Shown here in pieces: positions 1,238-32,321 of a DNA stretch of 33,714 nt. The stretch's first letter is position 1, and every line of letters starts with the position of its first letter. The translations under genes were made by a program, and so were the position numbers. Origin of the DNA: Candidatus Delongbacteria bacterium (GTDB taxonomy: Bacteria; Delongbacteria; UBA4055). The stretch covers positions 1 through 33,714 of the forward strand of contig JAFGUL010000183.1 of NCBI GenBank assembly GCA_016938535.1, in the 5' to 3' direction. Under the pieces are notes generated by a model. That model had not been told where the DNA came from and ran no database searches. It saw only the letters and a list, made by a program, of their open reading frames with translations.

Positions 1238-2785
1238 TTGACATCCAAATTAAACACCACAATAATTCTGCTGACCGCTTTCTTTTCTCTTTTTGCATCT
1301 GAACATCAGATCAAAATTGGGGACATCAGCTTTATTGATTCGGACTGGGACTTGAACGGGAATACTTTATTCTCGAGAAAGAAAGTTGATGAGATCACAT
1401 CAGATCAAAAAGCTGTAGTTCTGCACTTCTTCACGGCTCAAACCTGCTGAACCGGAATTGCAGAATCGCCGTCGGCGATGAATTTGAATGATGTTATAAA
1501 CAACCTGACAGAAAAGGATTTTTATGCCGTAGGAGCAGCCACTAATTTGTATAACTACGCGGATTTAAAAATATTCAGAGATGTTAATTCTCTGGATTAT
1601 AATCTTTCCGCCTTTTCAGAACTGGGCCGTTTCTACGATTATTTTTCCGGTCAGTTCGTATTCATAGGGAAAGATAACCGTATAGTCGGAATATTGAATT
1701 CTTCCGCTGAAAAAACCATGATCGAAGAAAAAATAAAAGAAGCAATGGCGACTTTTTACGGTATCCGTTCAAAAGAACACCCGAACTATTATTTTCTGGA
1801 CAATGATCAGGAAATGATCAAACTGTCCGATCTATTCTATTATCAAAATATTAATGAGGTCGAATTCAATATAACCGGATCAACTGATGAGTCAGTCTGT
1901 GATTATGAAATCTCAGGAGACGAGATATATCTCTCACGCGGATCAAAACCGGGACATACAGACATGACTGTTTCGATCGGTGTAAAAGACAAAGATATAC
2001 AGATCAGAACTGAAATATCCGTTATTAACTCACAGCATTATGAGCTTGAGGATTTCGAGTACGGATCACTATCAGGATCTCCGTTAAACTGGATCGCTGA
2101 TAGCGGCGGATGGGAAACAGATCTTACAAACAGCTATTCGGGAAAAATGAGCCTTAAGTCGGGGAAAATCGATCATTCAATGAGTTCTGCATTAAAGATC
2201 AATATCACTCTTGATACAGAATCCGCAATTTCTTTTGCATACAAAACCGATTCCTATTATGAGTATTATCTCGATGAGATAGACGGGGATTTCCTTAATT
2301 TCTATATGAACGGAGTAAATGTAACCTTAAGAGAAAGCAGAGAGCTCTGGGGCGGTAACAATGATTGGAGAATGGTCTCATTTCAGCTTGCAAGAGGCGA
2401 CTATGAGCTAATGTGGGAATACAATAAAAATGAGTGGGGAGCCTCGGATAACGATGCTGTCTGGATCGATTTTGCTGTACTTCCGGATAACCTTTCTTCC
2501 GCTGTTTCAGGAGGCTTAATTCCCGAAAGCCATGATTTGAAAATATCTCCAAACCCCTTTAACCCTGAAACTGAGGTTTCTTTTAAACTTGACCAAAAAG
2601 AGCATGTGAAATTAAATCTTTACGATTTAAAAGGCAGGGAAATAATGGAGATCATAAACGAAGAAATGGGTTCAGGCAGACATTCATTTATCATCTCACC
2701 TTCTGATCTTGCCGGAGGCACCTATTTCATGGTTCTTAAAGCAGGAAATAACACTCAGGCGAAAAAAATTGTATTTCTAAAATAG
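1238..2785 (+). CDS. Predicted secreted selenoprotein: thioredoxin-like domain with in-frame UGA (Sec71) and T9SS sorting tail, copy 1
   Basis: Seen: one frame of 515 residues with a single in-frame TGA at 1448-1450 (residue 71). TTG at 1238 is the preferred start, since AGGGGA lies 7 nt upstream; TTG at 1232 is too close. Order of parts: signal peptide (about 1-20); TlpA/ResA-like thioredoxin fold (about 22-175) with AVVLHFFTAQTC-U-TG at the redox site and FVFIGKDNRIVG as the later strand; cadherin-like module (about 195-265); beta-sandwich with ELWGGNNDW and VWIDF (about 268-420); T9SS type-A tail starting at SPNPFNPE (about 435-515). Known: Sec often replaces a redox Cys in thioredoxin folds. 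Inferred: a surface or secreted disulfide or peroxide redox protein. A 13-nt gap to its paralogue suggests an operon. Ordinary annotation would split it at 1450. The SelA, SelB, SelC and SelD machinery is not in the window. Confidence 0.87.
1448..1479 (+). promoter_or_regulatory. UGA codon plus SECIS-like hairpin, copy 1
   Basis: TGA at 1448-1450 is followed by 20 bases up to a 3-nt loop, GTC (1471-1473). The loop is closed by a perfect 6-bp stem, ATCGCC (1465-1470) with GGCGAT (1474-1479). From memory, bacterial SECIS models require an apical loop of 3-14 nt about 16-37 nt after the UGA, with G among its first two bases. This hairpin meets all of these. The hairpin lies inside the reading frame, as bacterial SECIS elements do. 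Confidence 0.8.
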
Positions 2786-2798
2786 AAGGAGATCAGCG

Positions 2799-4331
2799 AT
2801 GTACAGGATGCTCATAATGATAATACTGTCTTTAACTTCTCTATATGCTGTAAATAATGACCCGATAAGTATTGGCTCTGTTTCATTTACGGCTGCAGAA
2901 TGGGATGATTTTTACAATATTGATTATTCCAGCCACAGAATAAATGATTATACAGCTAACGACAGGGCAGTAATTCTCTATCTTTTTGAAGCATGTTTCA
3001 GCTGAACGGGCTATGCTGTACTGCCGGAGGCAGTAAATCTTCATAAAGCAATATATCTTCAGGAAGATCAAAGTGAATTTTTTGCAATTGGAGGATCATC
3101 CAACCTAAATACTTATGAAGAACTACTTGAATTCAAAAAAATACATAATAATAATTTTAGCTTGGCCACAAAAGATGAACTGGGTTTCAGATATCGAACC
3201 GATTTTGCTGATAATTTTACTTTTATCGGAAAGAATAACAGGATAGTAGGCACATTAAATGACGATGCTTCTGTTGACGATATTGATATCATGATAAAAC
3301 GGGCTTTAGCATCATTTTACGGTCTTGCTGTAAAAAATGATTCAGATAAACTCTTGTTGACTGAGGAGCAGACAGCTTTAAACATCGCGGACTATTTTAG
3401 GGCTGATGATCACAGCATAATAGATTATGAAATAAAAAACAATACCAACCCGAATATTGTTGAGGCTATTATTTCTGAAGGTGAACTTATCCTTTCGAAA
3501 ACTGCAGTTAACGGAGTATCTGACCTGAGCATCATTGCAAGAATCCATGGTCGGGATATATATGTTCAGACCGATGTCAAGATCATTAATCCTACATCAG
3601 TTTATGAAGATTTCGAGATCGCGAAACTTGAAGATTCAATTATAAGATGGACTCAGTCGGGTAATGCTGACTGGTTTGTTACTGAAGAAGAGTCATATTT
3701 CGGCTCGAAATCCTTAAGGTCCGGAGAAATAAACGGCGGAGAGACTTCTGCAATAAGCGTGGAACTTAACCTGACTGAACCGGGTGTTGTAGTTTTTGCC
3801 TACAAGACATCCTGCAGAGACTATTACAACAAATTGAATTTTTACATTGATGATCTCAACATGACTGCAACAGAGTCACCGTACTTATGGTCGGGAATAA
3901 GAGACTGGAGATTAATGTCATACAGTGTCAGATCTGGTCCCAGAATACTAAAATGGGAATACTTCAAAAGCCCTTATGATCCTCTCTTCAATCTTGACAG
4001 GATCTGGATAGATATGGTAATAATACCTGATAAATTTTCAGAAACAACTGGAACTTACGAAATACATGATCATGATTTAAACTATACTTCCTATCCTAAT
4101 CCTTTTAATCCTTACACTATCATCAATTTTGATCTGTCCTTAAATTCTCAAGTGGAATTGATGATCTTCGATTCTAAAGGAAGAATGGTCGAGACTTTAT
4201 ATAACGGAAATTTGAACAAAGGAAATCACTCATTTAATTTTGACGGGAGCAGACTTTCAAGCGGTATTTATTATTCTGTTCTAAGATACGGGAATAAAAT
4301 CGTAACACATAAAATGATTCTGGCGAAATAG
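2799..4331 (+). CDS. Predicted secreted selenoprotein: thioredoxin-like domain with in-frame UGA (Sec69) and T9SS sorting tail, copy 2
   Basis: One frame of 510 residues contains a single in-frame TGA at 3003-3005 (residue 69); no other stop lies between the ATG at 2799 and the TAG at 4329-4331. AAGGAG ends 7 nt before the ATG. The protein is a paralogue of the upstream gene along its whole length: signal peptide (1-18), thioredoxin-like fold with AVILYLFEACFS-U-TG, then FTFIGKNNRIVG, a cadherin-like module (LNIADYF to the VKIIN strand), a beta-sandwich with YLWSGIRDW and IWIDM, and a T9SS tail beginning YPNPFNPY. Here the redox site is C-F-S-U, the usual CxxC spacing with Sec as the second residue. 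Homology to copy 1 continues directly across the UGA (TG.A..P.A.NL), so the downstream part is translated as one protein. Likely a secreted thiol/selenol oxidoreductase; its substrate is unknown. Confidence 0.87.
3003..3035 (+). promoter_or_regulatory. UGA codon plus SECIS-like hairpin, copy 2
   Basis: TGA at 3003-3005 is followed by 20 bases up to the loop GGA (3026-3028), closed by a perfect 7-bp stem, TACTGCC (3019-3025) with GGCAGTA (3029-3035). The spacing is the same as in copy 1. Compared with that stem, two base pairs are swapped and still pair (T-A to C-G, and C-G to T-A). That is compensatory change and argues for a conserved RNA structure. Confidence 0.8.
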
Positions 4332-4333
4332 AT

Positions 4334-5650
4334 TTATCCGCAATACTCTCCGAATTTTTTTCCTATTTCCCGATAGAGTTCAAACAATTTTTCTATACTT
4401 TCGATCTCTGCCCATTCATCTGCTCTGTGAGAGTTCCAGCCCACAGGTCCGGAAACTAACACCGGAATATCAGGCCTGTACCTTTTGAAAACATTTTCGT
4501 CAGCAACAGAATATCCCATGTTATAATTCCTGAATGTCCCGATACTGTCAATGCAGTTTCTGACATGAACGGTAAAGGGATGATCCGCAGGAGTCAGGTA
4601 AGCTTCGCTATACGGTGTCGGTCTTTTTTTAAGCTTTAGTTTGATCTTTTTTTCGACTCCTTCTACAACAACGGGAATTAGAATTCTTTTTTTATACAGC
4701 GAATCAATAAAGTCTTTCAGCTTTTTTCTTATTTTTCTTATGGACATGTTCGGTGTGAATGTGCAGTCAATTACTATTCTTCCTGAAGACGGAATTGAAA
4801 GACTTTCGTTCCCGCAGTCGATCTTTGAGATAAACATTGAGCCTTCAATTTTATTTGAAGCTTTGACATCAGGTACTTTTTCTGTATTGAAAACAAAAAC
4901 ATCGCTATAACTTTTCCTGAACTTCTCGAACTCCACTGCGAATTTTGATGCTTCAACTGCTGCGCTGACAAAAGACGGATCCTTCGATATTGCACCGTGA
5001 CCGCCGGTTCCGTAAACACCAATCTCGAACTCGCACCTTCCGAGCCTGCCTATGCCCAGAGTTTCATGTCCGTAAAATCTGTTCGGCCCGTCCCCTATTT
5101 CCGGAACTACGATTGCCTTCACATCGTCCATGAACGGGCTTTGAGCCAACACATTCGCACCCGCAGAATAGTATTCTTCGTCAATGCCGAAGGCTACCTT
5201 GATCTTGTATCCTGTTGGGAGTACATCCCTGAAAGCAAGACAGATCACCGCCAGACCCGTTTTCATATCGTTCGAACCGAGTCCGAATAGCGCTTTTCTT
5301 TTTTTACCCTGAAATGTTACCGTTCCTTCTCTTGGAGTAAGCGCTGTCTTGGTACTCAGCCATGTATCAGACGACACAGTATCCGAATGACCATAAAACA
5401 GGATCGAGCTCTCCCCTTCTCCTTTCTCTGCCAGAAGATTGTAATGTTTAACACCTTTTTTATCCTGAAATACAAACTGCTTCTCAACCCTAAAACCGGC
5501 TTCCTGGAGTTTCAATTCTAGAAATTTATTTATCTTTGCTTCTCCTGAACCCTGATAATATTTTCCATTCTTTTTTACTAGATCGAAAGGATTTCTGGAA
5601 TCAATTCTTATGAGTTCTTTTACCAGTTCTATAACTTCTTTATGTTTCAT
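4334..5650 (-). CDS. M20 family zinc metallopeptidase (ArgE/DapE/carboxypeptidase G2-like)
   Basis: A cytoplasmic di-zinc hydrolase of the M20 clan, acting on N-acyl amino acids or small peptides; the exact substrate cannot be read from sequence. Metal and catalytic residues are in the usual order: YGHSDT with His88 and Asp90, GSNDMKTG with the bridging Asp128, GIDEEYY with the general base Glu158 and ligand Glu159, VPEIGDG with Glu184, and a C-terminal NSHRADE with His408. An insertion between the metal motifs (about 195-340) fits the lid/dimerisation domain. The 438-residue length is typical. There is no signal peptide. The ATG at 5650 has a purine-rich AAGGTCAGGG leader. Its 3' end lies 2 bp from the convergent copy-2 selenoprotein gene, with no room for a terminator. 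Confidence 0.88.
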   Translation of the reverse strand: MKHKEVIELVKELIRIDSRNPFDLVKKNGKYYQGSGEAKINKFLELKLQEAGFRVEKQFVFQDKKGVKHYNLLAEKGEGESSILFYGHSDTVSSDTWLSTKTALTPREGTVTFQGKKRKALFGLGSNDMKTGLAVICLAFRDVLPTGYKIKVAFGIDEEYYSAGANVLAQSPFMDDVKAIVVPEIGDGPNRFYGHETLGIGRLGRCEFEIGVYGTGGHGAISKDPSFVSAAVEASKFAVEFEKFRKSYSDVFVFNTEKVPDVKASNKIEGSMFISKIDCGNESLSIPSSGRIVIDCTFTPNMSIRKIRKKLKDFIDSLYKKRILIPVVVEGVEKKIKLKLKKRPTPYSEAYLTPADHPFTVHVRNCIDSIGTFRNYNMGYSVADENVFKRYRPDIPVLVSGPVGWNSHRADEWAEIESIEKLFELYREIGKKFGEYCG

Positions 5651-5752
5651 GCCCTGACCTTTTATTTTTTATTGAATGTATTATATAAAAATTCTCATTG
5701 TTTAAACAGTAAAATTTAGTTTTATTTTGAGACCGAAAAAAGGAGACCGGCA

Positions 5753-6922
5753 TTGAGCACAAATGAGATTACAGAAGAGAAAAAGAAGAAGTTTGACCTT
5801 CCGATCGTACTCACAGTTTCAATTTCACATCTGATAGCAGACACATATTCCGCTTTTCTCGCTCCCGTACTTCCTCTTCTAATTTCGGGACTGGGAATTT
5901 CAAAATTTCAGGCCGGACTACTAGACTTTGCAAGGAAAATTCCTTCGCTTTTGAATCCGCTTTTCGGGATGATCGCCGACAGGCTCGATGCCAAATACTT
6001 TCTGATACTCGGATGCATAATAATTACAGTTTCAATGAGCCTTTTGGGAGCTGTAAATGATTTCTTAACTTTGTTCATACTGATCTTTATCGCAGGTCTC
6101 GGAACCAGCATTTATCATGTTCCCGGTCCTGTTATAATCAAAAAGGTCGCGTCAGAAAAACTGGGCCTCGGAATGAGTTTCTACATGCTAGGAGGTGAGT
6201 TTGCCAGATTTCTCGGACCTCTCGTTATCCTTAGCGCGATAAGTCTATGGTCATTTAAGGGCAGCTGGCGTGTAATGCCTCTCGGTCTCGCAGTCGCGGC
6301 TTTTCTATATTTGAAGGTTAGAAAAATATCTGTCCACAAAAAAAATGAGAACGGGAACGCAAAGCTTAGAGATTACAGAAAATATATAAGATTTTTCATT
6401 ATCATCACAGGAATAGTGATCTTCAGATCGGGAATGCATTCGGCTCTGACCCTGTATCTTCCTACCTATATGAATTTCAAGGGTAATTCCCTATGGGTTT
6501 CAGGAATTTCGCTTTCCGTACTTCAGTTCGCAGGAGCAGCCGGTACATTTATAATCGGAATACTGTCTGATAGGATCGGCAGGAAGAAAACTCTGCTGGG
6601 TCTTTCGACTTTAAATCCGGTTCTTATGCTGGCTTTTATATACTCATCGGGATTTTTTATTTTTCCCGTTCTGGCTTTGAGCGGGTTTATTCTTCTGGGC
6701 AGCAATCCGATAATCCTCGCTCTCGTTCAGGAAAGGGATACTGAGAATTTATCTTTTTTGAACGGGACTTATATGACGATAAGCTTCGTCGGGAGCTCGG
6801 TCATGGTACTGACCGTAGGATTGCTTTCTGATATATTCGGTCTTGATACAACTTACTTGATCACTGCATTTCTCGCGATAGCTGTAATACCTTTCGTACT
6901 GATGCTGAAAGAAACGAAATAA
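5753..6922 (+). CDS. MFS transporter, fosmidomycin-resistance (Fsr)-like
   Basis: A 389-residue inner-membrane protein with about 12 hydrophobic helices and a short charged N terminus. The first helix carries the HLIADTYSAFLAPVLPLL pattern and the loop after helix 2 has GMIADR, as in the Fsr branch of the major facilitator superfamily; a second half-repeat loop has GILSDRIGRKK. The family exports small molecules by proton antiport. The substrate here is unknown, and resistance to fosmidomycin should not be assumed. The start is TTG at 5753, supported by AAAGGAG 7 nt upstream. It is divergent from the M20 gene and ends 9 bp before the end of the convergent C25 protease gene. Confidence 0.82.
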   Translation: MSTNEITEEKKKKFDLPIVLTVSISHLIADTYSAFLAPVLPLLISGLGISKFQAGLLDFARKIPSLLNPLFGMIADRLDAKYFLILGCIIITVSMSLLGAVNDFLTLFILIFIAGLGTSIYHVPGPVIIKKVASEKLGLGMSFYMLGGEFARFLGPLVILSAISLWSFKGSWRVMPLGLAVAAFLYLKVRKISVHKKNENGNAKLRDYRKYIRFFIIITGIVIFRSGMHSALTLYLPTYMNFKGNSLWVSGISLSVLQFAGAAGTFIIGILSDRIGRKKTLLGLSTLNPVLMLAFIYSSGFFIFPVLALSGFILLGSNPIILALVQERDTENLSFLNGTYMTISFVGSSVMVLTVGLLSDIFGLDTTYLITAFLAIAVIPFVLMLKETK

Positions 6923-6931
6923 TACCGGACA

Positions 6932-9900
6932 TCATTTTATCAAAATCATCTTCTTCGTGAGCGCTTTACCGTCAGTTTCAAGCGTGTAGTAATAAACTCC
7001 CGAATTGAATCTGCTTCCGTCAAAATTCACAGTGTGTATTCCTGCATGTACCGAACCGTTCTCAAGTTCAGCTACTTTCTGGCCTGAAATATTGTAAACA
7101 CTCAATTTTACTTCGGAAGCTTTTGAAAGCGCGAACTTGATCTGAGTAAAAGGATTGAACGGATTAGGGTAATTCTGATAAAGCTCTGTACTCACAGGTA
7201 ATGCTTCATTTTCGCACTCAATATCTGAAGTTGATATTCCTGTAGCAAGTATGTTGTCGATCCATGCCTTATTTGCTCCCGATCCGTAGCTGGCGTCTCT
7301 TGAAAAAGTCCATTTAAACTCATTTATACCAGCAGAAACATCGTAAGATTCTTTTGCCCAGTCACGGTTGCCGCTCCAGAAACTTTTCAACTGTCCGTTT
7401 ATGTAAAAACCGAGCTTATCATAAGTCAGCTCTGAAGAAACTTTTCTGTAAAAGCTGATCTCTCCGTCTTCGAGATAGTTAAATATTACTGAAATTGACG
7501 AGCTTTCGCTGTCCCCCACTTCTCCTGATGAGGCGGAGAAACCTTTCTCAAAGTAAACCAGATCATCTATGATCCACTCTTTGTCGCCCGAAAACACCCA
7601 GTTATTTGCTGTAAAATCTCCGGTCGAAAAATTATCCGTCATTCCTATAGCCTGTGAATAGAAATATTCTTCCGTTAAACCTGTTGTCGAATTAAGTGAT
7701 AACTTATAGTCGGCTTTAGATGAGTTAAGTATGTCTGTCCCGTAGCTGCAGTTAAAAACTAATTCAGCGGTTGCTCCCGGAGGAACAGGTTCTAAATTCA
7801 CAGATGAACTTATCTGAATATCAAATTCCGTGATCTGGTCAAGCACTGCTGTGATCTCTCCGGATCCGGCATGACCTTCATTTTTTACAAAAAAACTTAC
7901 CTGCTGATCTTCACCCTGTATTGCTGATTCTGTATCGAACGAATGCGAAATTTCTATTACGGGAGCATTGGCTGTCATATATACAGTAGAATTATAAGAA
8001 TTTTTTTCGAATGAATCATTAATAGCTATATCGAATCTTATCCTTTCCTGATCGGGAACATTCGGATCGATCATGAAACTGAATGCACCTTCGACTGTAG
8101 CGGTCTGTTCCGGTCGTAAAGAGTCAATTTCAAATGTATAATTATCCTGGATCATCTGAACATACTCAGAATCAGTTGAGACGCTCATATTTATTCCGTC
8201 ACTGTTTTCAAGACCGATATTGGAGATCATGAAGTTCATTGACGACAATTCGCCGTAATCAGTTGTGCTGAAAGAATAATCTCTTATCGTCAGGTACGGA
8301 CCCTGGGGAATTATAACCGGCAGTGTCTCCTGAATCGGAGCCAAATTAAATCCTGAAACGGTCAGAACAATATCACCTTCAATAAATGTATGATCGATCG
8401 ACACATTACCTTCAGCATCGGTTATCCCGCAAAATACATTACCGTTCTGAAACAGACTTACGGTTGCGCCTTGGGCAGGCAGGCCGTTAGAAAGTACCGT
8501 CGTGGAATAATTATCGATAAATACAGTATTATTCATATTATCAGGAATAACAGGTTTATCTCTTCTGACCTGGAGTGCAGCGTCACCGAATACTGTCCAA
8601 GTTTCTACAGTTGAGATTGTAGATGCGTCTGACGGAGCCTCTCCAAGGGTCAGAGCTGCAGCATTTACTGCTATGGATCCGAATGTGATCATCTGATCGG
8701 ATGTTGAATCACCATTCCCGGGATTATGGGTATAATCATATCCGCCTATAAGGATATCGTTGAAATAATCCTGACCTCTCATAGGAGGAACCCAAGGCTG
8801 ATTTATAGTTGCAAACCAACCTGCTACTGCACCACCGCCCGCCTTTTTAAGCCATGCTTCGGCAAAGCAGTCTGATGATCCGGAGAAATGACCTACAACG
8901 CAGGCAACTGAAACAATGAAAGGAAGACGGTTCTCGTTTGTAAGATTGTTCACATTGGTGTTACTGAAGCTCGGCCCGCCCCAGCCCTGAGTATATCCGT
9001 GTCCTGTATAATTGATCAGAGAAACACCCTGATTAATGTAGGATGATATAAGAGTCGAACCTGCACCGTCTGCCTGGTATCCGGTATAAACTTCAGTGTA
9101 TGTTGACGGTAAAAGTTTGTAATTATTAATTATCTCGTTGTGAATCTCATCACTTTCCCCGTCATCACCGATCCCTTCTCCCTCGTTCGAGGCAAGTGCA
9201 AGTGCTTTTGTGTACCACTCTCCCGAAATATCCGGATCTCTTTCATATTCAATTGTTTTATTGATCTGGATTGAAAGCTGAAGTGAATCGTTTGCAGAAA
9301 ATCTTCCGATGATCACATCCTGATATTTGTCATTACCGGCTACACATCCCAGAACAGGGTCTTTTGATCCGTCGAGCTCAAGTGAATATCTTGATTTAAG
9401 ATTTGCCCAGTCACCGACCGGCTGGACATACAAAATGTTGTTATTGCTCTCATAAGCCTGCCTGACAGTTCCTGAAGCATCAAGATCAGTTCCGTTTGGA
9501 ACTTCAAGTGTATGAACTTTATGTCCAAGCTGCATTTTCCAGTCAATATAGGGCTTTAGAGCATCAAGACCTCCGTTCTCAGGTGTATAGATCACAAGAA
9601 TTTCTCCCCTGTCTCCAACCTGTAGGGATTTTGATTCATTATAATTAATGTAAAGCGATCTGTAAACTCCCTCCATTTCTCCGGTGATCAGACCTTTGTT
9701 TGAAGGCAGAACATTTACCGGTTCTTCTTCATTCTCTGTAAGCTTTACAGTAACTGATCTGTATATTCTCAGTATATTCTTCTCTGCATTATATCTGAAA
9801 GGATAGAAGACCACATTGATGCCTCTCGTATCCCTGATTATAAACGGTTCGCTGTTCTCGATCAGATTTTCCGGGTACCATTTATCTGTTAATGACTCTT

Positions 9901-10294
9901 CTGATATCACATAAGGTATTTTTGAAATATCCTGATCTCTTGTTAAGGGACCTCTGGAGGGTAGCATCGGATATTCAAGTTTTATATCTATAAAATCACT
10001 TCCGGAGACAACAGCTGTCATATTTCTGTTCTGTCCGATCTGAATTGAGGCACTCAAATAAGGAAGTTCGGCAAAACCTTTCCTGTTGGTGTGAACACCT
10101 TTATCGAAGATTATTCTCGAATAATCTGTTCCGTCAGAAGAAAATTCCGTTATTTCATAATCCGGTATAGACAATATTATTTCACCGCCTGAATATCCGG
10201 CACTTTGATAGCTGAACAATTCTTTTGAATCATTCAGAGAAAAGGCCCGGGTTATGATTGTCATCAGGATCGTTAGAATATATGCGTGTTTCAT
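6932..10294 (-). CDS. C25 family (gingipain-like) cysteine protease with T9SS sorting tail
   Basis: A 1120-residue secreted protease. Order: signal peptide (1-20); gingipain-type propeptide (about 25-220); C25 catalytic domain (about 228-585) with NYTGHGYTQGW giving the catalytic His432 and VSVACVVGHF giving the nucleophile Cys465; Ig-like modules (about 590-890), where one segment resembles CARDB-type repeats; a beta-sandwich (about 895-1015) with FWSGNRDW and AWIDN; and a type-A T9SS tail (about 1039-1120) starting at YPNPFNPF and ending KKMILIK. PorU, the T9SS sortase, is also C25 but lacks such a tail, so this looks like a T9SS cargo protease. The beta-sandwich and tail resemble those of the two selenoproteins at 1238-4331. 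It stops with TGA (6932-6934). A TTGACA at 10342-10347 lies upstream without a convincing -10 box. Confidence 0.9.
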   Translation of the reverse strand: MKHAYILTILMTIITRAFSLNDSKELFSYQSAGYSGGEIILSIPDYEITEFSSDGTDYSRIIFDKGVHTNRKGFAELPYLSASIQIGQNRNMTAVVSGSDFIDIKLEYPMLPSRGPLTRDQDISKIPYVISEESLTDKWYPENLIENSEPFIIRDTRGINVVFYPFRYNAEKNILRIYRSVTVKLTENEEEPVNVLPSNKGLITGEMEGVYRSLYINYNESKSLQVGDRGEILVIYTPENGGLDALKPYIDWKMQLGHKVHTLEVPNGTDLDASGTVRQAYESNNNILYVQPVGDWANLKSRYSLELDGSKDPVLGCVAGNDKYQDVIIGRFSANDSLQLSIQINKTIEYERDPDISGEWYTKALALASNEGEGIGDDGESDEIHNEIINNYKLLPSTYTEVYTGYQADGAGSTLISSYINQGVSLINYTGHGYTQGWGGPSFSNTNVNNLTNENRLPFIVSVACVVGHFSGSSDCFAEAWLKKAGGGAVAGWFATINQPWVPPMRGQDYFNDILIGGYDYTHNPGNGDSTSDQMITFGSIAVNAAALTLGEAPSDASTISTVETWTVFGDAALQVRRDKPVIPDNMNNTVFIDNYSTTVLSNGLPAQGATVSLFQNGNVFCGITDAEGNVSIDHTFIEGDIVLTVSGFNLAPIQETLPVIIPQGPYLTIRDYSFSTTDYGELSSMNFMISNIGLENSDGINMSVSTDSEYVQMIQDNYTFEIDSLRPEQTATVEGAFSFMIDPNVPDQERIRFDIAINDSFEKNSYNSTVYMTANAPVIEISHSFDTESAIQGEDQQVSFFVKNEGHAGSGEITAVLDQITEFDIQISSSVNLEPVPPGATAELVFNCSYGTDILNSSKADYKLSLNSTTGLTEEYFYSQAIGMTDNFSTGDFTANNWVFSGDKEWIIDDLVYFEKGFSASSGEVGDSESSSISVIFNYLEDGEISFYRKVSSELTYDKLGFYINGQLKSFWSGNRDWAKESYDVSAGINEFKWTFSRDASYGSGANKAWIDNILATGISTSDIECENEALPVSTELYQNYPNPFNPFTQIKFALSKASEVKLSVYNISGQKVAELENGSVHAGIHTVNFDGSRFNSGVYYYTLETDGKALTKKMILIK

Positions 10295-25801: not shown

Positions 25802-27652
25802 ATGACGGGAAAGAAATTACATAAAGAACTCGGACTTCTTGATATATTCTGTATATCATCCGGAGCGATGATAAGTTCAGGGCTCTTTATTCTGCCCGGA
25901 CTGGCGTATGTTCAGGCAGGACCCGGAATGATATTATCATACATGATCGCCGGAATGCTTGCACTGACAGGGCTGATGAGCCAGGCCGAACTTGTTTCCG
26001 CAATGCCCAAGGCGGGAGGTGACTATTTTTTTATCACAAGGAGCATGGGTCCCGCAGTAGGAACCATCAACGGGCTAATAGTGTGGTTTTCAATATCATT
26101 AAAAAGTGCTTTCGCCCTGATCGGAATGGCGGCATTCACACAATTAATTATCAATATAGATGTCCATATTATTGCTCTTATTCTGTGCTTATTCTTCCTT
26201 TTCATTAATATTGCAGGTGTAAAAGAAGCGAGCAGATTTCAGGTTTTCATTGTGATATCTCTGATCGCTCTTATACTTTTCTTTGTTTTTTCGGGACTCA
26301 ACTCTGTAAATGTCAACAATTTCTCACCTTTCGCGTCACAAGGGATCCTGAGCATTTTCTCAACAGCCGGACTGGTTTTTGTTTCCTACGGAGGGCTTTT
26401 AAAGGTTGCGAGCGTGGCAGAAGAGGCAAGAAATCCTACAAGAACAGTTCCTCTGGGCATGATACTCTCACTGGTTATTGTCGGGATTCTGTACGCTCTG
26501 GTGATCTTTGTAACTACCGGCATTTTGGGCGACAGTCTAGGAACCAGTGTAGAGAACGCCACTCTTACCCCGATAACTGATGCAGCAAGGATCAGTATGG
26601 GAAATTTTGGATTCTATGCTCTTTCTGTAGCCGCGATCCTTGCTTTTGTTTCAACTGCAAACGCCGGAATAATGTCGGCCTCGAGATATCTTCTGGCATT
26701 AAGCAGAGATAAGCTGATTCCGTCTTTCTTCTCAAAAATGTCCAAAAGATCTTATGTTCCGATATATTCAATATTGTTCACAAGCGCATTCATGGTCTTA
26801 TCGTTATTTTTAAAACTTGATGTTCTGATCAAAGCTGCCTCTACCGTAATGATAATTACTTATATTTTTTCATCTCTCGCAGTAGTGGTTTTAAGAGAGA
26901 GCAAAGTTCAGAACTATCAGCCTAAATTTAAAAGTCCTCTCTATCCCTGGATCCAGATCATAAGCATCACCGGATTTTCATTTCTTGTTTTTGAGATGGG
27001 GATCGAAGCAATTCTTACTGCTCTCGCGCTGGCGTTTATCGGATTTGCGGCTTACTGGTTCTACGGCAAAAAGAATTCAGAGAAAGAATATGCTATACTG
27101 AGCCTGATAGAAAGAATAACGAACAGGGAATTTGTAACTTTCAATCTCGAAAACGAACTCAAAGATATTATAAGAGAAAGAGACGAAATTATTAAGGACC
27201 GCTTTGATCATATTATTGAAGAATGCTCGATTGCAGATATTGATGAAAGATTGTCATGCAAGGATCTGTTCAGTATAATCGCTTCTCATATATCACCAAA
27301 ACTTAACATTGATAGAGAGAATGTTGAGAAACTCCTTATTCAGAGAGAAAATGACAACAGCACTGCACTGACAGATTTTATAGCCATACCTCATATTATT
27401 ATTGAAGGCACAGAAAAATTCGATATATTTTTGTACAGAGGTAAAAACGGTTTCGTTTTCACTGACAACAGAGACAATATAAAAGCTGTTTTTGTTTTAC
27501 TCGGCACCAAAGATCAGAGAAATTTTCATTTGAGAGCAATTTCCGCTATCGCCCAGATAGTTCAGGATCCCGATTTTAAGGAAAGATGGGAAAATGCTAA
27601 AACCATAGAGCACTTAAGAGATATCGTGCTTCTCGGCAAAAGGATCAGATAA
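25802..27652 (+). CDS. APC-family amino acid permease fused to a PTS EIIA (type 2/PtsN-like) domain
   Basis: A 616-residue fusion. Residues about 8-422 form an APC superfamily transporter with about 12 helices: the early SSGAMISSGLFILPG is the substrate-binding helix break, followed by QAELVSAMPKAGGDYFF and KVASVAEEARNPTR. A charged linker (about 425-485) leads to a cytoplasmic EIIA-like domain (about 487-616) with TDFIAIPHI, where His531 matches the phosphorylated His of PtsN/fructose EIIA, and FHLRAISAIAQIVQD. Known EIIA(Ntr) proteins regulate transport by phosphorylation. Inferred: uptake of an amino acid or amine gated by a PTS phosphorelay. The substrate is unknown. AGGAGG lies before the ATG. 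It is flanked by terminators on both sides, so it is monocistronic. Confidence 0.88.
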   Translation: MTGKKLHKELGLLDIFCISSGAMISSGLFILPGLAYVQAGPGMILSYMIAGMLALTGLMSQAELVSAMPKAGGDYFFITRSMGPAVGTINGLIVWFSISLKSAFALIGMAAFTQLIINIDVHIIALILCLFFLFINIAGVKEASRFQVFIVISLIALILFFVFSGLNSVNVNNFSPFASQGILSIFSTAGLVFVSYGGLLKVASVAEEARNPTRTVPLGMILSLVIVGILYALVIFVTTGILGDSLGTSVENATLTPITDAARISMGNFGFYALSVAAILAFVSTANAGIMSASRYLLALSRDKLIPSFFSKMSKRSYVPIYSILFTSAFMVLSLFLKLDVLIKAASTVMIITYIFSSLAVVVLRESKVQNYQPKFKSPLYPWIQIISITGFSFLVFEMGIEAILTALALAFIGFAAYWFYGKKNSEKEYAILSLIERITNREFVTFNLENELKDIIRERDEIIKDRFDHIIEECSIADIDERLSCKDLFSIIASHISPKLNIDRENVEKLLIQRENDNSTALTDFIAIPHIIIEGTEKFDIFLYRGKNGFVFTDNRDNIKAVFVLLGTKDQRNFHLRAISAIAQIVQDPDFKERWENAKTIEHLRDIVLLGKRIR

Positions 27653-27698: not shown

Positions 27699-30641
27699 TT
27701 ACCTTAACCTGTCCTCTCTGACCATAATAATTTTATTTTCATTTATCTTCGTGTTATTAATCGCAGAAACATAATAGAACATCTTAGTTCCCGTGAAAGG
27801 TCCCGTCCATTCCGTTCCGTTGAAAGTACCGGTTTCGTCAAGAGTAAATGTTCCGTAAGGATCTTCTGAAGAGTAAACGAGATAACCCGTAGCGTCTGTA
27901 ACTGCATTCCATGTAATTATCACATCCGTGCCGCTGACTGTCAGAGCAAGATTTGCCGGAGCTTCAACCGGAAGCCTGTATTCCCAGTTTAGGTACGGAT
28001 ATCCGTCATTGAGACTGCTGTGAATGTTCCAGTAATCGTTTGTTCCGTTGGCAGATTCACCGAAAAAATCCCAACCCGCAGAAGTAAATGTGCTCAATGT
28101 GCTCATTTCAGCGTCAGTCAGTCCTGTTGCGGTACCCGCAGAACTGCTTTGAGCAGAAGTTTCTGTATTCCAGAAGACATTTCCGGTCGTACCTGTGTTA
28201 TAACCCAAAAATCCTTTATCTGTCGGATCTGTAGTATTTTCATAATAAACCCCTGAAGTGGAATACGAGTTATTGATCTGCGACCAGTTTGCTCCCGCAA
28301 AACCACCAAAGAAAGTCGCTGTTTGTCCAGTTGCTCTGGTGACAGAACCTTTTGCATAGCAATTGGAAATAACAGATGTTGTAGAGTTCCTGCCGACAAA
28401 AGAACCTACCTCATTATTGCCTTTAACATTACCTTCCGCAAAACAATTATCCACAGTTGAATTATATGCCAGGCCAATAAGATTACCCACATAATTTGCG
28501 CCTGTGATATTTCCGCCTTTTACACCCATATCGTATATGACTGCGCCGTTGGTCCTTCCAAAAAGTGCACAGTAACTTGAAGCCGGTCTGTTCACATAAA
28601 GATCTGTTACTATATGACCGCCACCGTTATATACTCCGGCGAAATTATATATGCCGCTCCAACCTGCACCACTATCCCATGTGGAAGTAGGCGAAGCGTC
28701 AATGTCTGCTGTCTGAAGAAAATTATAGCTAAGGAAACTCCTCACTTCATTAAGTTGGGTCAGGTTCGACACGAGGAACGGTTCATCAGAAGTTCCGATA
28801 CCGCCGGCAAAAGGAGAAGGATTGTGTGAGATTCTCTGCCATGAAAGGAATGGAAATCCGTTGTTTTCAACTGCATTAATTCCCCATATATCTTCAGTTC
28901 CGTTTACAGATTCACCCTGAAAATCCCATGTTGCAGTTGTGAAATTTGATAGCGTCCTCATTCCGTCAGAAGTTAAACCGGAAGCTCCTGTTGCAGTTGA
29001 CTGTCCGGAAACTTCAGTATTCCAGAAGTTATTTGAGAATGTACCTGTACTTGAACCGACAAAGCCTTTATTAATGGGGTCTGTTGACCCTGTATAGCTT
29101 ACGCTCCCTGTAGAATAGGAGTTCGATATATCCCCACCGAAGTTTCTGCCGCAGAAAGCTCCGTTGTCTGTAGTGTTCGTTCCTGCGCTTCTTGTGACAT
29201 CCACATTTGCATAGCAGTTACTGATGGATGATCCCGTGAAAATATATCCAGCGAACCCACCGGATCTGTATCCGTCAGTCGTGTCAAGCAAACCGTTGGA
29301 ATAACAATATCTTACTATACCTTCATTTCTACCTACAAGAGTACCTGCATACTGCCTACCGGTCACATCTGCGTTTTCTATTCCGATGTTTTCAATGATT
29401 CCTGCAGGAGTTGTTGATCCAAATAGACCCACAAGATCCTGTGCAGGTCTGTTTATGTAAAGATTTGATACTGTATATCCCTGACCGTTATATTTTCCTG
29501 CAAATGAAGTGATCGGGATCCAGCCTGCTCCGCTGTTCCAAGTTGAAGTGGCAGAAGCGTCAATATCTGCTACCTGTATAAAACATGCGCTCAAGTAATT
29601 CCTTACAGCATTGAGCTGATCCAGAGTTGCGATCTGGTAGGGATTAGCCTCCGTTCCGGCCCCGTCAGCAAAAGCATTAGCCACATCATTTATCGTGTAC
29701 TGCGTAGCTGAGTTAATTGTATATGTAGCTGTTCTTGGTGATCCCGTTGTATTGAATACTGCTCCATCAACTTCAACCCAACCTAAAGTTTTGGGTGCTT
29801 CTCCAACTGGAGTATAACCGTCGTAAACATCTTCAATATTTCTTTCAGATCCCGTTTCAGCGTTTCTCACTGCCGTTTTAGCGGTGCTTTTCTTCTTCAT
29901 TATTCCAGGTTCGGTTTCTTCACTTCCCGAGACTTTGGATTGATCATATTTCCAGACTTTAAGATTCGAAAGAACATTTCCGTTATCCTCACCTGACAGC
30001 CAGCTTGTTGTAACCTGCCTAGTTCCGGTGAAAGCGTTCGATGTCTGAACATCCCACTTCCTCCAGATACCTTCAGAACCGTATAGAACTACCTCGCTTC
30101 CGTCCCCTGTATAACGGTAAATGGTTACAGTTCCAAGGTTGCCAGTACCAGTACCCATTGAATAACCGATACCCCCGAAAGTGCTCGAACCTGTACCGAC
30201 TAATCTGGAAGCTTTTGTAGTTCCAACAATGTAACCGGAAGTCGATTCTCCGGTGACAGAGGCAGTTGAAGCCAGCTCAAATGTATTTGTTCCGGTAACT
30301 ACATTTCCGCTTACAAATGAAATAGTGCCTGTCAAAGCAAAATTTGCCGTACTGTTATTGAGCCTTACACTGCCGGAAGGTTTGTTGATCTCAATATTCG
30401 GGAAAGTATAAATATTCGTGATCGTATCATTAGAAGACCCGACAAAACTCACTTTTGATGTTGACAAAAAATCTATAGTTGCAAGCTTAGATTCCGAACC
30501 TTCTTTAACGAGATTGTTGGTAATATTTCCGTAAACTCCCAAAGTAGCATTACCGATATACACCCTGCTCCCGGAAGTAAAAGTGATACCTGCATGCATG
30601 AAACTGAATGTAACAAGCATAGCCAGCAGTATCTTTTTCAT
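27699..30641 (-). CDS. Secreted GLUG-repeat protein with internal duplication and C-terminal fibronectin III-like domain
   Basis: A 980-residue secreted protein starting at ATG 30641 (AAGGAGG 6 nt upstream); the frame is open to 30674. Order: signal peptide (1-17); a Gly/Ser/Thr-rich beta region (about 20-310); two large homologous GLUG units (about 328-602 and 615-886), each starting with a NPYQI/EPFLV...LNxVRxxLS segment, then ADIDAS.TSTW.SGAGW, several GxxFxG-type turns and ending FWNTE...WDF.GES.NGT...W; then an FN3-like domain (about 892-965) with APANLALTVSGTDVIITWN. No T9SS tail is visible, unlike three other secreted proteins here. Likely a surface adhesin-type protein; the ligand is unknown. 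GLUG is named from a conserved short motif and its function is not settled. Confidence 0.8.
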   Translation of the reverse strand: MKKILLAMLVTFSFMHAGITFTSGSRVYIGNATLGVYGNITNNLVKEGSESKLATIDFLSTSKVSFVGSSNDTITNIYTFPNIEINKPSGSVRLNNSTANFALTGTISFVSGNVVTGTNTFELASTASVTGESTSGYIVGTTKASRLVGTGSSTFGGIGYSMGTGTGNLGTVTIYRYTGDGSEVVLYGSEGIWRKWDVQTSNAFTGTRQVTTSWLSGEDNGNVLSNLKVWKYDQSKVSGSEETEPGIMKKKSTAKTAVRNAETGSERNIEDVYDGYTPVGEAPKTLGWVEVDGAVFNTTGSPRTATYTINSATQYTINDVANAFADGAGTEANPYQIATLDQLNAVRNYLSACFIQVADIDASATSTWNSGAGWIPITSFAGKYNGQGYTVSNLYINRPAQDLVGLFGSTTPAGIIENIGIENADVTGRQYAGTLVGRNEGIVRYCYSNGLLDTTDGYRSGGFAGYIFTGSSISNCYANVDVTRSAGTNTTDNGAFCGRNFGGDISNSYSTGSVSYTGSTDPINKGFVGSSTGTFSNNFWNTEVSGQSTATGASGLTSDGMRTLSNFTTATWDFQGESVNGTEDIWGINAVENNGFPFLSWQRISHNPSPFAGGIGTSDEPFLVSNLTQLNEVRSFLSYNFLQTADIDASPTSTWDSGAGWSGIYNFAGVYNGGGHIVTDLYVNRPASSYCALFGRTNGAVIYDMGVKGGNITGANYVGNLIGLAYNSTVDNCFAEGNVKGNNEVGSFVGRNSTTSVISNCYAKGSVTRATGQTATFFGGFAGANWSQINNSYSTSGVYYENTTDPTDKGFLGYNTGTTGNVFWNTETSAQSSSAGTATGLTDAEMSTLSTFTSAGWDFFGESANGTNDYWNIHSSLNDGYPYLNWEYRLPVEAPANLALTVSGTDVIITWNAVTDATGYLVYSSEDPYGTFTLDETGTFNGTEWTGPFTGTKMFYYVSAINNTKINENKIIMVREDRLR
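27984..29660 (-). repeat. Two tandem long GLUG units inside the surface protein gene
   Basis: At protein level, 28836-29660 and 27984-28799 encode homologous units of about 275 residues that match along most of their length (for example ADIDAS.TSTW.SGAGW near both starts, and WDF.GES.NGT near both ends). The DNA has diverged, so this is an old internal duplication. Confidence 0.8.
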
Positions 30642-30692
30642 AAAAACCCTCCTTATATTTTGAAAATCTGTCATAACAAATTCCTTTTTCGT

Positions 30693-30720
30693 AATTTACA
30701 CAAAAAATAACTCATTTCAA
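30693..30720 (-). promoter_or_regulatory. Possible promoter of the GLUG gene
   Basis: On the minus strand TTGAAA (30715-30720) and TAAATT (30693-30698) are separated by 16 nt, about 50 nt before the ATG. The boxes are moderate matches. Confidence 0.4.
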
Positions 30721-30730
30721 AATCATTTTC

Positions 30731-30746
30731 TGTGACGGACTTCACA
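30731..30746. promoter_or_regulatory. CRP/FNR-family-like operator
   Basis: The sequence is exactly TGTGA-N6-TCACA, the E. coli CRP half-site arrangement. It lies just upstream of the putative GLUG promoter and 9 nt after the end of the 30756 gene. Its centre would be near -52, not the usual -41.5 or -61.5. It could alternatively be a short hairpin in the mRNA of the upstream gene, but no T run follows it. Confidence 0.4.
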
Positions 30747-30755
30747 ATAATCAAT

Positions 30756-32312
30756 TTATTTCAAAAGTTTTTCAAGCGCTTCTTCAAGTTTTGTGATCCT
30801 TGCATTTTGATCTTCAATTTTTTCAGAGAGCTTCTTATTGCTTTCTATCAGATCAACAACATCCTGATCATCATAACCTTTTTCCTCCTTGCTCAGAACG
30901 CAAAGTAAACCTCTGGAATCAACCTTAAGATCTTTTTTGTCATAAGATGATGTCATTGCATATGCTTCCGGAGCAAAAACTCCTCCGTCCTTTTCAACTT
31001 TAAAAGCATTTGACCTGCTTGTGGAACTTGTACCGTTACCGACTACAAATAATGCATCTCCGCTAACCCATGAAGTTGAAGTTCCGCCGATAGTGTTATA
31101 CTGCCCGCATACAAATGATGCATAAGGTTGTGCCGTTGTGTACCGCCCTATTGCTGTTGAATAATAACCGGTAGCTTCTGTGCGGTATCCCGAAGCTGTT
31201 GAATAAGAACCGTTAGCAATTGAATAATAGCCTGATGCTGTAGAATAACTTCCTATTGCATCTGTGTAATAGCCAATGGCGGTAGAACCATAACCTGATG
31301 CTTCAGCACCTCTGCCTGATAATGTTGCCGTATATGTATTACTGGCTCTTGCACCGGAACCTAACGCAACAGAATTTGAACCTGTCGCCCAGGCTCCGAT
31401 ACCGACTGCAGTCGCTCCGTACTGATTGGCAACTGCCAAACCTCCAAGTGCACATGCATATTCAGCAGATGCTGATGCCACTACGCCAACAGCTGTTGAA
31501 TTAGAGCCTGAAGCAACACTTAATACACCCCCTGCAAAAGAAGACGAACCCGATGCTTCTGTATTAACTCCTATTGCGAATGAACTGGTTCCTGAGGCAG
31601 TAGCTTCAGACCCGATTGCACCAGAATTATCTCCGGAAGCTTCGGCCAGATATCCGGATGCAAAAGATGATTCCCCTGTGGCGTTCGCCTGTTTCCCAAG
31701 CGCTGTTGAAAAATTCCCGACCGCCTGACTCTTGTAACCCGATGCAAATGATCCCCTACCTACAGTTAAAGGATCAGTTATGTACACATATCCGACCCTG
31801 AAAGCATTTCTATCTTTGTACCATAACATGGTTGAGTCGTTAACAGTCTCAAAAACAGATTCGTTTGAAATCCTCATCAGATTTCCTGAACCTTTAGATG
31901 AAATCTGGTCATTGATTGCAAAATCCCTATTTAGAGCAGGATTTACATTCGCAGTGATACCAGTCTTACTGATGCTGAATATCTCATCAGAATTATCCGA
32001 CGGATTGTAAAAAGTAGCTCCTTCATCTGTAGCTACTTCGAAAACTTTACTTTGGGATTTTGTATCTTTTGAAGACGCTGTTGTAACACTGAAAGATCTC
32101 GACAATCCTTTAGTCGCATCCTGCTGGATATATGCTCTGATCCCGTCAGTGCTGATTACCATCAGCGTATCTCCCTGATTAAGTATCCTGAGACCGTCAG
32201 TTGATACATTGAGCACCGTATTGTTCGAAGCATCCTTTACTTCAAAAAGCGTTTCACCGCATAAATATGCAGTAAAAATGACCATGCAGACCATAAGAGT
32301 ATTTCTCATCAA
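30756..32312 (-). CDS. YadA-like head-repeat surface protein, long copy
   Basis: A 518-residue protein. Order: signal peptide (about 1-19); an N-terminal domain (20-180) starting ETLFEVKDASNN, almost identical to the neighbouring gene; about 16 YadA/Hep_Hag-type head repeats of 14 residues (186-408) of the SxASGxxSxAxG kind, which fold as a left-handed beta-roll; a neck (about 411-450) with FVVGNGTSS.SRSNAF; and a C-terminal coiled coil (about 488-517) with heptads. Trimeric adhesins have such heads, but no membrane-anchor barrel and no T9SS tail is present, so this may be a fibre or spike protein rather than an autotransporter. GGAGG precedes the ATG. It begins 9 nt after the short copy, so the two are probably cotranscribed. 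Confidence 0.82.
   Translation of the reverse strand: MMRNTLMVCMVIFTAYLCGETLFEVKDASNNTVLNVSTDGLRILNQGDTLMVISTDGIRAYIQQDATKGLSRSFSVTTASSKDTKSQSKVFEVATDEGATFYNPSDNSDEIFSISKTGITANVNPALNRDFAINDQISSKGSGNLMRISNESVFETVNDSTMLWYKDRNAFRVGYVYITDPLTVGRGSFASGYKSQAVGNFSTALGKQANATGESSFASGYLAEASGDNSGAIGSEATASGTSSFAIGVNTEASGSSSFAGGVLSVASGSNSTAVGVVASASAEYACALGGLAVANQYGATAVGIGAWATGSNSVALGSGARASNTYTATLSGRGAEASGYGSTAIGYYTDAIGSYSTASGYYSIANGSYSTASGYRTEATGYYSTAIGRYTTAQPYASFVCGQYNTIGGTSTSWVSGDALFVVGNGTSSTSRSNAFKVEKDGGVFAPEAYAMTSSYDKKDLKVDSRGLLCVLSKEEKGYDDQDVVDLIESNKKLSEKIEDQNARITKLEEALEKLLK
31089..31757 (-). repeat. Array of about 16 head repeats with 42-bp (14-residue) period
   Basis: Coding tandem array for residues 186-408 of the long copy. 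Units alternate SYSTASGY/SSFASG-type and AxG-type strands. The region nearest the neck (31130-31280) is the most uniform, which suggests recent unit duplication there. Confidence 0.8.
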
Positions 32313-32321
32313 GTCCTCCCT

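What the first reader, a model, noticed from the sequence alone, without database searches (positions are those of the whole stretch)
1238..4331. Two tandem paralogous genes each read through one UGA at the same site: probable new selenoprotein family
Seen in sequence: the frames 1238-2785 and 2799-4331 each contain exactly one in-frame TGA (1448 and 3003), at homologous positions inside a thioredoxin-like domain where a CxxC is expected. Homology between the copies continues directly past the UGA (both have U-T-G-x-A-x-x-P-x-A-x-N-L, then matching strands). Two independent nonsense mutations at the same codon with intact flanks are very unlikely. UGA is a stop elsewhere in the window (purE 607, C25 6932, lspA 18140), so recoding must be local. 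Established: Sec often replaces a redox Cys in thioredoxin folds. Standard pipelines would split each gene in two.
Basis: partly seen in the sequence, partly recalled or inferred. Interest (0 to 1): 0.93.

Follow-up and report, generated by a model that had tools for sequence, protein, structure and literature searches.

The report
Secreted selenoproteins hidden behind UGA codons
Two neighbouring bacterial genes each contain a UGA codon, normally a stop signal, that is very likely read as the rare amino acid selenocysteine, giving an apparently new family of predicted secreted redox proteins, most of whose database entries found here begin only after that codon.

Summary
Confirmed, and larger than reported. 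Frames 1238-2785 and 2799-4331 each hold one in-frame TGA (1448, 3003) and are paralogues (33% identity through the site). Each TGA is followed, at the same distance (20 nt), by a 6-bp hairpin with a G-first triloop. A covariance model built only from other genomes ranks these two sites first and second in the window. Ten of those 11 genomes have SelB or tRNA-Sec. In Cloacimonadota, 37 of 38 relatives covering the site have TGA; one has Ser and lacks the hairpin. One Cys homologue was found. In six contigs the TGA gene lies within about 5 kb of selC and selB. The domain is a TlpA/ResA-like thioredoxin fold, fused to further beta-rich domains and a T9SS sorting tail. I found no such family in NCBIfam or in a 119-entry review table. 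Recoding to selenocysteine is very well supported by sequence; protein, selenium content and redox activity are untested. The window's own genome is not held.

The parts
1238..2785 (+). Gene 1 (W1): predicted T9SS-exported thioredoxin-fold selenoprotein, 515 aa; TTG start, TAG stop
   Evidence: 36% identical to the G227 relative over residues 8-274. Long branch in the tree.
1448..1450 (+). In-frame UGA, predicted Sec codon 71; motif Q-T-C-U-T-G (vicinal Cys-Sec)
1465..1479 (+). Predicted SECIS hairpin of gene 1: ATCGCC-GTC-GGCGAT, loop 20 nt after the UGA
   Evidence: second-best hit of model R1 in the window, 21.0 bits, E 0.0022
2799..4331 (+). Gene 2 (W2): predicted T9SS-exported thioredoxin-fold selenoprotein, 510 aa; GAAGGAG ribosome site at 2785-2791 (by eye)
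   Evidence: Its part after the UGA is the closer match to the single resident gene between purE and the M20 peptidase in G227 and G319: 53% and 48%, against 35% and 34% for gene 1.
3003..3005 (+). In-frame UGA, predicted Sec codon 69; motif C-F-S-U-T-G (CxxU)
3020..3034 (+). Predicted SECIS hairpin of gene 2: ACTGCC-GGA-GGCAGT, loop 20 nt after the UGA
   Evidence: best hit of model R1 in the window, 38.2 bits, E 7e-8
1358..1759 (+). Thioredoxin-fold (TlpA/ResA-like) domain of gene 1, residues 41-174
2543..2773 (+). T9SS C-terminal sorting domain of gene 1
   Evidence: PF18962 E 8e-9; TIGR04183 35 bits, cut-off 23
4092..4319 (+). T9SS C-terminal sorting domain of gene 2
   Evidence: PF18962 E 4e-10; TIGR04183 38 bits

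Best explanation
The two tandem genes each carry one in-frame UGA that is very likely decoded as selenocysteine by SelB and tRNA-Sec acting on a predicted SECIS hairpin 20 nt downstream, which would give full-length thioredoxin-fold oxidoreductases predicted to be exported by the type IX secretion system. Shown from sequence: the single conserved UGA, a covarying hairpin at fixed spacing, Sec machinery in relatives of the same phylum, a Cys and a Ser replacement in distant relatives, and a C-terminal sorting domain; an N-terminal signal was read by eye only. Inferred: after export the Sec and its partner Cys (CxxU in gene 2, vicinal CU in gene 1, UxxC in most relatives) would form a reversible selenenylsulfide, and the protein would act as a cell-surface or extracellular disulfide reductase or isomerase. 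The middle beta-rich domains would hold it to the surface or to a ligand. Gene 2 is the resident copy at this syntenic site; gene 1 looks like a faster-evolving duplicate with a rearranged redox motif.
For: One UGA at one site: 25 of 25 hits in 11 of the 13 genomes of the window's phylum (21 reported with 1 TGA; L224, L227, L229 read upstream; L228). In Cloacimonadota, 48 hits, of which 38 cover the site: 37 TGA, 1 Ser. Hairpin: in 12 sequences (the two window genes plus 10 others, groups A and D) 72 of 72 cells pair, with 15 two-sided changes and 0 of 500 shuffles reaching the covariation score. In 41 sequences of UxxC groups 87.8% of cells pair, with 26 two-sided changes and 0 of 500. Model R1, built without the window, ranks the two UGA sites first and second in 33.7 kb on both strands (38.2 and 21.0 bits; next 12.7). 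Synonymous resampling reaches the observed stability in 15 of 400 (gene 1) and 4 of 400 (gene 2). The Ala codon at U+7 is GCG in 37 of 37 Cloacimonadota UGA genes against 6% GCG background; the Ser paralogue L177 shows no hairpin at that place. Machinery: SelB in 11 of 13 and tRNA-Sec in 10 of 13 genomes of the phylum, above cut-off. In Cloacimonadota tRNA-Sec is in 29 of 32 UGA-bearing genomes against 33 of 92 others, Fisher p 7e-8. Linkage: UGA gene, tRNA-Sec, selA (537 and 534 bits) and selB lie consecutively in L256 and L257. Cys homologue P0054 has CADC at the site. Fold.
Against: No protein, selenium or activity data. The window's own genome is not held. G315, the nearest genome, has SelB and tRNA-Sec but no hit to this family; G317 likewise. 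G320, with a UGA gene, shows neither SelB nor tRNA-Sec above cut-off; nor do G091 and G109 in Cloacimonadota. G112 there lacks tRNA-Sec, and G005, G131 and G145 lack SelB above cut-off. These may be gaps in draft genomes; completeness was not given. ARAGORN called tRNA-Sec in 4 of the 10 loci that Rfam scored above its cut-off. Gene 1 lacks the -3 Cys of its relatives and sits on a long branch. Whole-region folding of 45-61 nt is not exceptional against shuffles (z -0.07 to -1.15). Of the 37 Cloacimonadota UGA sites my hairpin scan scored a different hairpin best in 12: 10 at 9-10 nt, one at 15, one at 37. One measure of the pair counts, pairs with a change on both sides, is not unusual in A3 (3; 185 of 500 shuffles) and only moderately so in A4 (4; 25 of 500). 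Model R1 scores sequence as well as pairs, and its sequences encode homologous protein, so its hits are not independent of protein homology. Group B hairpins have other loops and were not in the pair counts.
Confidence: 0.94

Rival explanations
1. UGA is read through as another amino acid (near-cognate or suppressor tRNA, or a reassigned code), not as Sec.
For: A full-length frame alone does not name the residue.
Against: UGA ends 3 of 20 other genes in the window. Sec machinery is present in relatives of the same phylum. A covarying bSECIS-type hairpin sits at fixed spacing. Cys stands at the site in P0054. UGA genes lie next to selC-selA-selB in two contigs read.
Confidence: 0.03
2. The genes are decayed (nonsense mutations) or mis-assembled, and only the downstream ORFs are made.
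For: Database proteins of this branch begin after the UGA (10 of 10 relatives).
Against: The site is TGA in 25 of 25 hits of the phylum and in 37 of 38 of a second phylum, with no TAA or TAG there; the hairpin is conserved. The upstream part keeps a signal-like segment (by eye) and the first strand of the thioredoxin fold.
Confidence: 0.01
3. The UGA is a regulatory switch: mostly termination, with Sec insertion only when selenium is plentiful, so that the truncated product is the main one.
For: Bacterial Sec insertion competes with release factor 2; 30-40% recoding in vivo is stated in the abstract of PMC4513850 (start of abstract seen in the listing).
Against: Termination at residue 69-71 would leave a short peptide without active-site helix or sorting tail. 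Whether a separate downstream start is conserved was not tested.
Confidence: 0.02

Closest known systems
Thioredoxin-fold UxxC/UGC selenoproteins such as 'UGC-containing TlpA disulfide reductase family', 'Thiol-disulfide isomerase-like protein' and 'Redoxin family protein' (names from Table 1 of PMC13188914, read)
   Same: By their names, the same general fold class with a Sec/Cys pair; not compared by sequence here.
   Different: Those entries name no T9SS tail. The window genes use CxxU and CU, and in NCBIfam neither window protein matched any model outside the tail region.
ResA (PDB 2f9s, 1st9), thiol-disulfide oxidoreductase
   Different: About 10% identity. Here one active-site residue is predicted to be Sec and the domain is fused to further beta-rich domains and a T9SS sorting tail.
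CxxU and CU selenoproteins (e.g. SelW-like, AhpD-like, KCU-star; names from Table 1 of PMC13188914)
   Same: Position of the Cys before Sec.
   Different: Different names and domains in the table; not compared by sequence here.
T9SS cargo proteins (Por_Secre_tail)
   Same: C-terminal sorting domain above the Pfam and NCBIfam cut-offs.
   Different: Two searches pairing selenoprotein or selenocysteine with T9SS or type IX secretion listed one paper each, with one or two mentions of the terms (neither paper opened).

Membership tests
Bacterial selenoprotein gene | In-frame UGA inside an otherwise open, conserved frame | tested here: met
Bacterial selenoprotein gene | bSECIS: 3-9 nt loop with G in its first two positions, 4-16 bp stem, 16-37 nt from UGA, MFE at or below -7.5 kcal/mol (criteria from PMC13188914, passages) | tested here: met
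   Loops GTC and GGA, 6-7 bp, 20 nt; -8.3 and -11.0 kcal/mol for the 45 nt from UGA, though the hairpin of gene 1 alone is -6.7; covariation
Bacterial selenoprotein gene | SelB and tRNA-Sec in the same genome | tested here: inconclusive
   Own genome not held. Nearest relative G315 has both; 7 of 11 family-bearing genomes of the phylum have both and 10 of 11 at least one
Bacterial selenoprotein gene | Cys homologues at the UGA position | tested here: met
   P0054 CADC, a member of the sister UxxC branch. No Cys form was found for the window's own branch
Bacterial selenoprotein gene | Sec detected in the protein | not testable with these tools
   Needs labelling or mass spectrometry
TlpA/ResA-like thiol-disulfide oxidoreductase | Thioredoxin fold of this type | tested here: met
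   block-mean pLDDT 64-90 over residues 51-174, but under 50 at residues 41-48 and 70-72
TlpA/ResA-like thiol-disulfide oxidoreductase | Two-residue redox motif (CxxC type) at the start of helix 1 | tested here: inconclusive
   Gene 2 CxxU; gene 1 CU without a -3 Cys; most relatives UxxC. Whether U sits at the attacking or the resolving position in the CxxU group is ambiguous: searches align it differently
T9SS cargo | Por_Secre_tail domain at the C-terminus | tested here: met
T9SS cargo | N-terminal signal peptide | not tested
   Hydrophobic N-terminus read by eye only
An already listed prokaryotic selenoprotein family | Match to a curated selenoprotein model | tested here: not met
   NCBIfam scan of both window proteins and two Cloacimonadota relatives (C for U, E up to 0.1) gave no selenoprotein model; all matches lay in the C-terminal tail region

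The most novel reading that the evidence does not exclude
A superfamily of type-IX-exported selenoproteins exists in at least two phyla, in which selenocysteine is the rule and cysteine the exception. Within it, Sec and its partner cysteine changed places (CxxU, UxxC, UxxxC, vicinal CU), and in some Cloacimonadota such a gene is encoded as a unit with selC-selA-selB, so that surface redox chemistry may be a main reason these bacteria keep selenocysteine.
Probability: 0.6. Interest if true: 0.85.

Novelty: new variant of a known kind. Interest (0 to 1): 0.8.

Why it matters
Much bacterial selenoprotein finding relies on pairing UGA with Cys homologues (passages of PMC13188914 and PMC12013277). 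Here Cys forms are nearly absent (1 found), and 10 of 10 database relatives of the window genes and 22 of 23 hits for the sister family begin after the UGA site, so pipelines mis-call the genes and Cys/UGA pairing has little to pair with. A selenoprotein sent to the cell surface by T9SS would place Sec chemistry outside the cell, and the linkage to selC-selA-selB gives a concrete candidate for what maintains the Sec trait in some Cloacimonadota.

Tried and rejected
Rfam at gathering thresholds and ARAGORN on the window: nothing.

The first collection scans with the full alignment were swamped by the T9SS tail motif PNPFNPxT; the best 80 of more than 554 loci, and 56, came back. A tail-less comparison with all 136 loci found matches in 4 of them, none reaching the thioredoxin part. 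I used these loci only as entry points to genomes.

Foldseek on the whole model showed no thioredoxin among the 50 rows printed; the thioredoxin match appeared only after realignment. The second model (P0054) had pLDDT under 50 over residues 1-151 and was not used. Sequence search of gene 1 alone against solved structures gave nothing useful.

Shuffle z-scores of 45-61 nt regions do not single out the hairpins; I relied on covariation, synonymous resampling and the model search instead.

I considered and rejected a genome-wide code change, pseudogenes and assembly error (see rivals).

Rows dropped before counts: A3 used 12 rows of groups A and D. A4 used 41 rows (6 of groups C and E, 35 of Cloacimonadota); L177 (no UGA), L157 (other TGAs upstream in its frame) and one duplicate were left out. 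Group B (7 rows) and L226, L228 were in neither. The tree used 64 rows and warned that the places of W1, L214, L177 and L158 are unsure. Hit lists for the Fisher tests were copied by hand; fragmentary SelB below the cut-off counted as absent; one marginal tRNA-Sec (G069, 47.5 bits) counted as present.

Full report
Observation. The two frames are as described: 516 and 511 codons including the stop, one TGA each at 1448 and 3003, and no other stop. The products are 33% identical over 514 columns, through the site. The genes are tandem, 13 nt apart, each with a purine-rich ribosome site read by eye. UGA ends purE, the C25 peptidase and lspA, 3 of 20 other genes checked, so any recoding is local.

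Database picture. Gene 1 found 50 proteins. P0003 is the window's own. Ten (P0004-P0013) are true relatives, and 39 cover only 15-29% of the query. All ten relatives begin after the UGA site. A tail-less profile search found the same 11 proteins and no other. So no Cys form of this branch turned up in that database of 5.8 billion proteins, at that search's sensitivity.

Route to DNA of relatives. The window's genome is not held. Gene 1 residues 1-277 searched against 124 genomes of the phylum of G007 (record title of its locus L010: Candidatus Cloacimonadota) gave one hit, in G088, with one TGA. G088 has SelB (326 bits) and tRNA-Sec (58.5 bits) (ARAGORN SeC). The G088 N-terminal part as query gave 48 hits in 39 of 124 genomes: 37 with exactly one TGA (32 genomes) and 11 without. 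Of those 11, ten start past the site and one (G005:C160, locus L177) covers it with Ser. In the 37 the motif is UxxC. A protein search with residues 1-190 of one member found 23 proteins: P0054 covers the site, with CADC; the other 22 cover 48-63% and start after it (eight of the 22 read). A wider search of 289 relatives found G227. Its phylum has 13 genomes held; gene 1 hits 11 of them, 25 hits, all 25 with TGA at the site (21; three read upstream; L228). IleS of the window is 69-91% identical in all 13, in three of them as fragments, against at most 47% in 30 genomes reached through other loci, so this is the window's phylum. Gene order GT2-purE-[UGA gene]-M20-MFS-...-fabF-rnc-rplT-infC-thrS-lspA-dksA-ileS is shared with G227 and G319, which hold one UGA gene where the window has two; that gene is closer to gene 2.

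Hairpins. In the window's branch (groups A and D, 12 sequences) a 6-bp stem with a triloop stands 20 nt after UGA in every one. 72 of 72 cells pair, 15 cells change on both sides, and 0 of 500 shuffles reach the covariation score; the number of pairs with two-sided change (3) is not unusual (185 of 500) because three pairs never vary. In the UxxC groups the hairpin stands at 17 nt; of 41 sequences 87.8% of cells pair, 26 two-sided changes, 0 of 500. A model from the ten non-window sequences ranks 3003 and 1448 first and second in the window, 38.2 and 21.0 bits, next 12.7; it scores sequence too, so protein homology helps it. Synonymous resampling was as stable in 15 and 4 of 400 for genes 1 and 2, and in at most 57 of 400 for all 25 sites tested. 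In a plain scan of the 37 Cloacimonadota UGA sites, 25 gave the 17-nt hairpin as best and 12 another one (10 at 9-10 nt, one at 15, one at 37). Cloacimonadota use GCG at U+7 in 37 of 37 against 6% background, and the Ser paralogue shows no hairpin there. The published bSECIS criteria (PMC13188914, passages) are met.

Machinery. Window phylum: tRNA-Sec above cut-off in 10 of 13 and SelB in 11 of 13. Of the 11 family-bearing genomes 7 have both, 3 have one, and G320 has neither. G315 and G317 have both but no family hit. Cloacimonadota: tRNA-Sec in 29 of 32 UGA-bearing against 33 of 92 other genomes (p 7e-8), SelB in 27 of 32 against 29 of 92 (p 2e-7); phylogeny is not corrected for. In six contigs (G131:C130, G132:C23, G133:C4, G135:C2, G137:C68, G138:C65) the UGA gene lies within about 5 kb of tRNA-Sec and selB, and in G147:C83 of tRNA-Sec. 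Two were read: UGA gene, tRNA-Sec, selA, selB, in a row on one strand.

Known or new. The review PMC13188914 (section with Table 1, parts 1 and 2 of 3; other passages) lists 119 families and subfamilies; I saw none described as T9SS or sorting-domain proteins. PMC12013277 (passages) has no occurrence of Cloacimonad- or Delongbacteria. PMC5330540 (one passage) records an unusual Cloacimonetes-type tRNA-Sec. Searches for selenoprotein or selenocysteine with Cloacimonetes, Cloacimonadota, Delongbacteria, type IX secretion and T9SS returned 1, 0, 0, 1 and 1 papers; of these I read a passage of the first only. Broader searches were seen as listings. Subscription papers and preprints are not held, so absence from print is not proven. 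The review mentions a 44,000-MAG groundwater screen (its ref. 66), which I could not find and which may contain some of these genes.

Verdict. The finding is real and the interpretation right. Sec decoding is very likely; T9SS export and redox function are predictions.

Noticed in passing
L256 (1450 to about 6960) and L257 (about 1380 to 6771): UGA gene, tRNA-Sec, selA and selB stand in a row on one strand: a selenoprotein encoded with its own decoding machinery.
   Followed up: partly
L177 (G005:C160): A paralogue with Ser at both motif positions (SPSS) and no SECIS-like hairpin at the usual place: Sec and its partner Cys lost together.
   Followed up: yes
L216-L222: Group B of the window's phylum (motif U-S-T-C) has hairpins with other loops at 20-21 nt; not included in the pair counts.
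   Followed up: no
L230-L240: ARAGORN calls tRNA-Sec in 4 of the 10 loci that Rfam scores above cut-off, so this phylum may have an atypical tRNA-Sec.
   Followed up: no
window 27699-33434: Three large ORFs on the minus strand: one with GLUG motifs, two with weak similarity to trimeric autotransporter adhesins, far below the curated cut-offs.
   Followed up: no
window 25802-27652: Amino acid permease with a PTS EIIA-type domain at its C-terminal end.
   Followed up: no
window 6932-10294: C25 (gingipain-type) peptidase with T9SS tail, consistent with a working T9SS in this organism.
   Followed up: no
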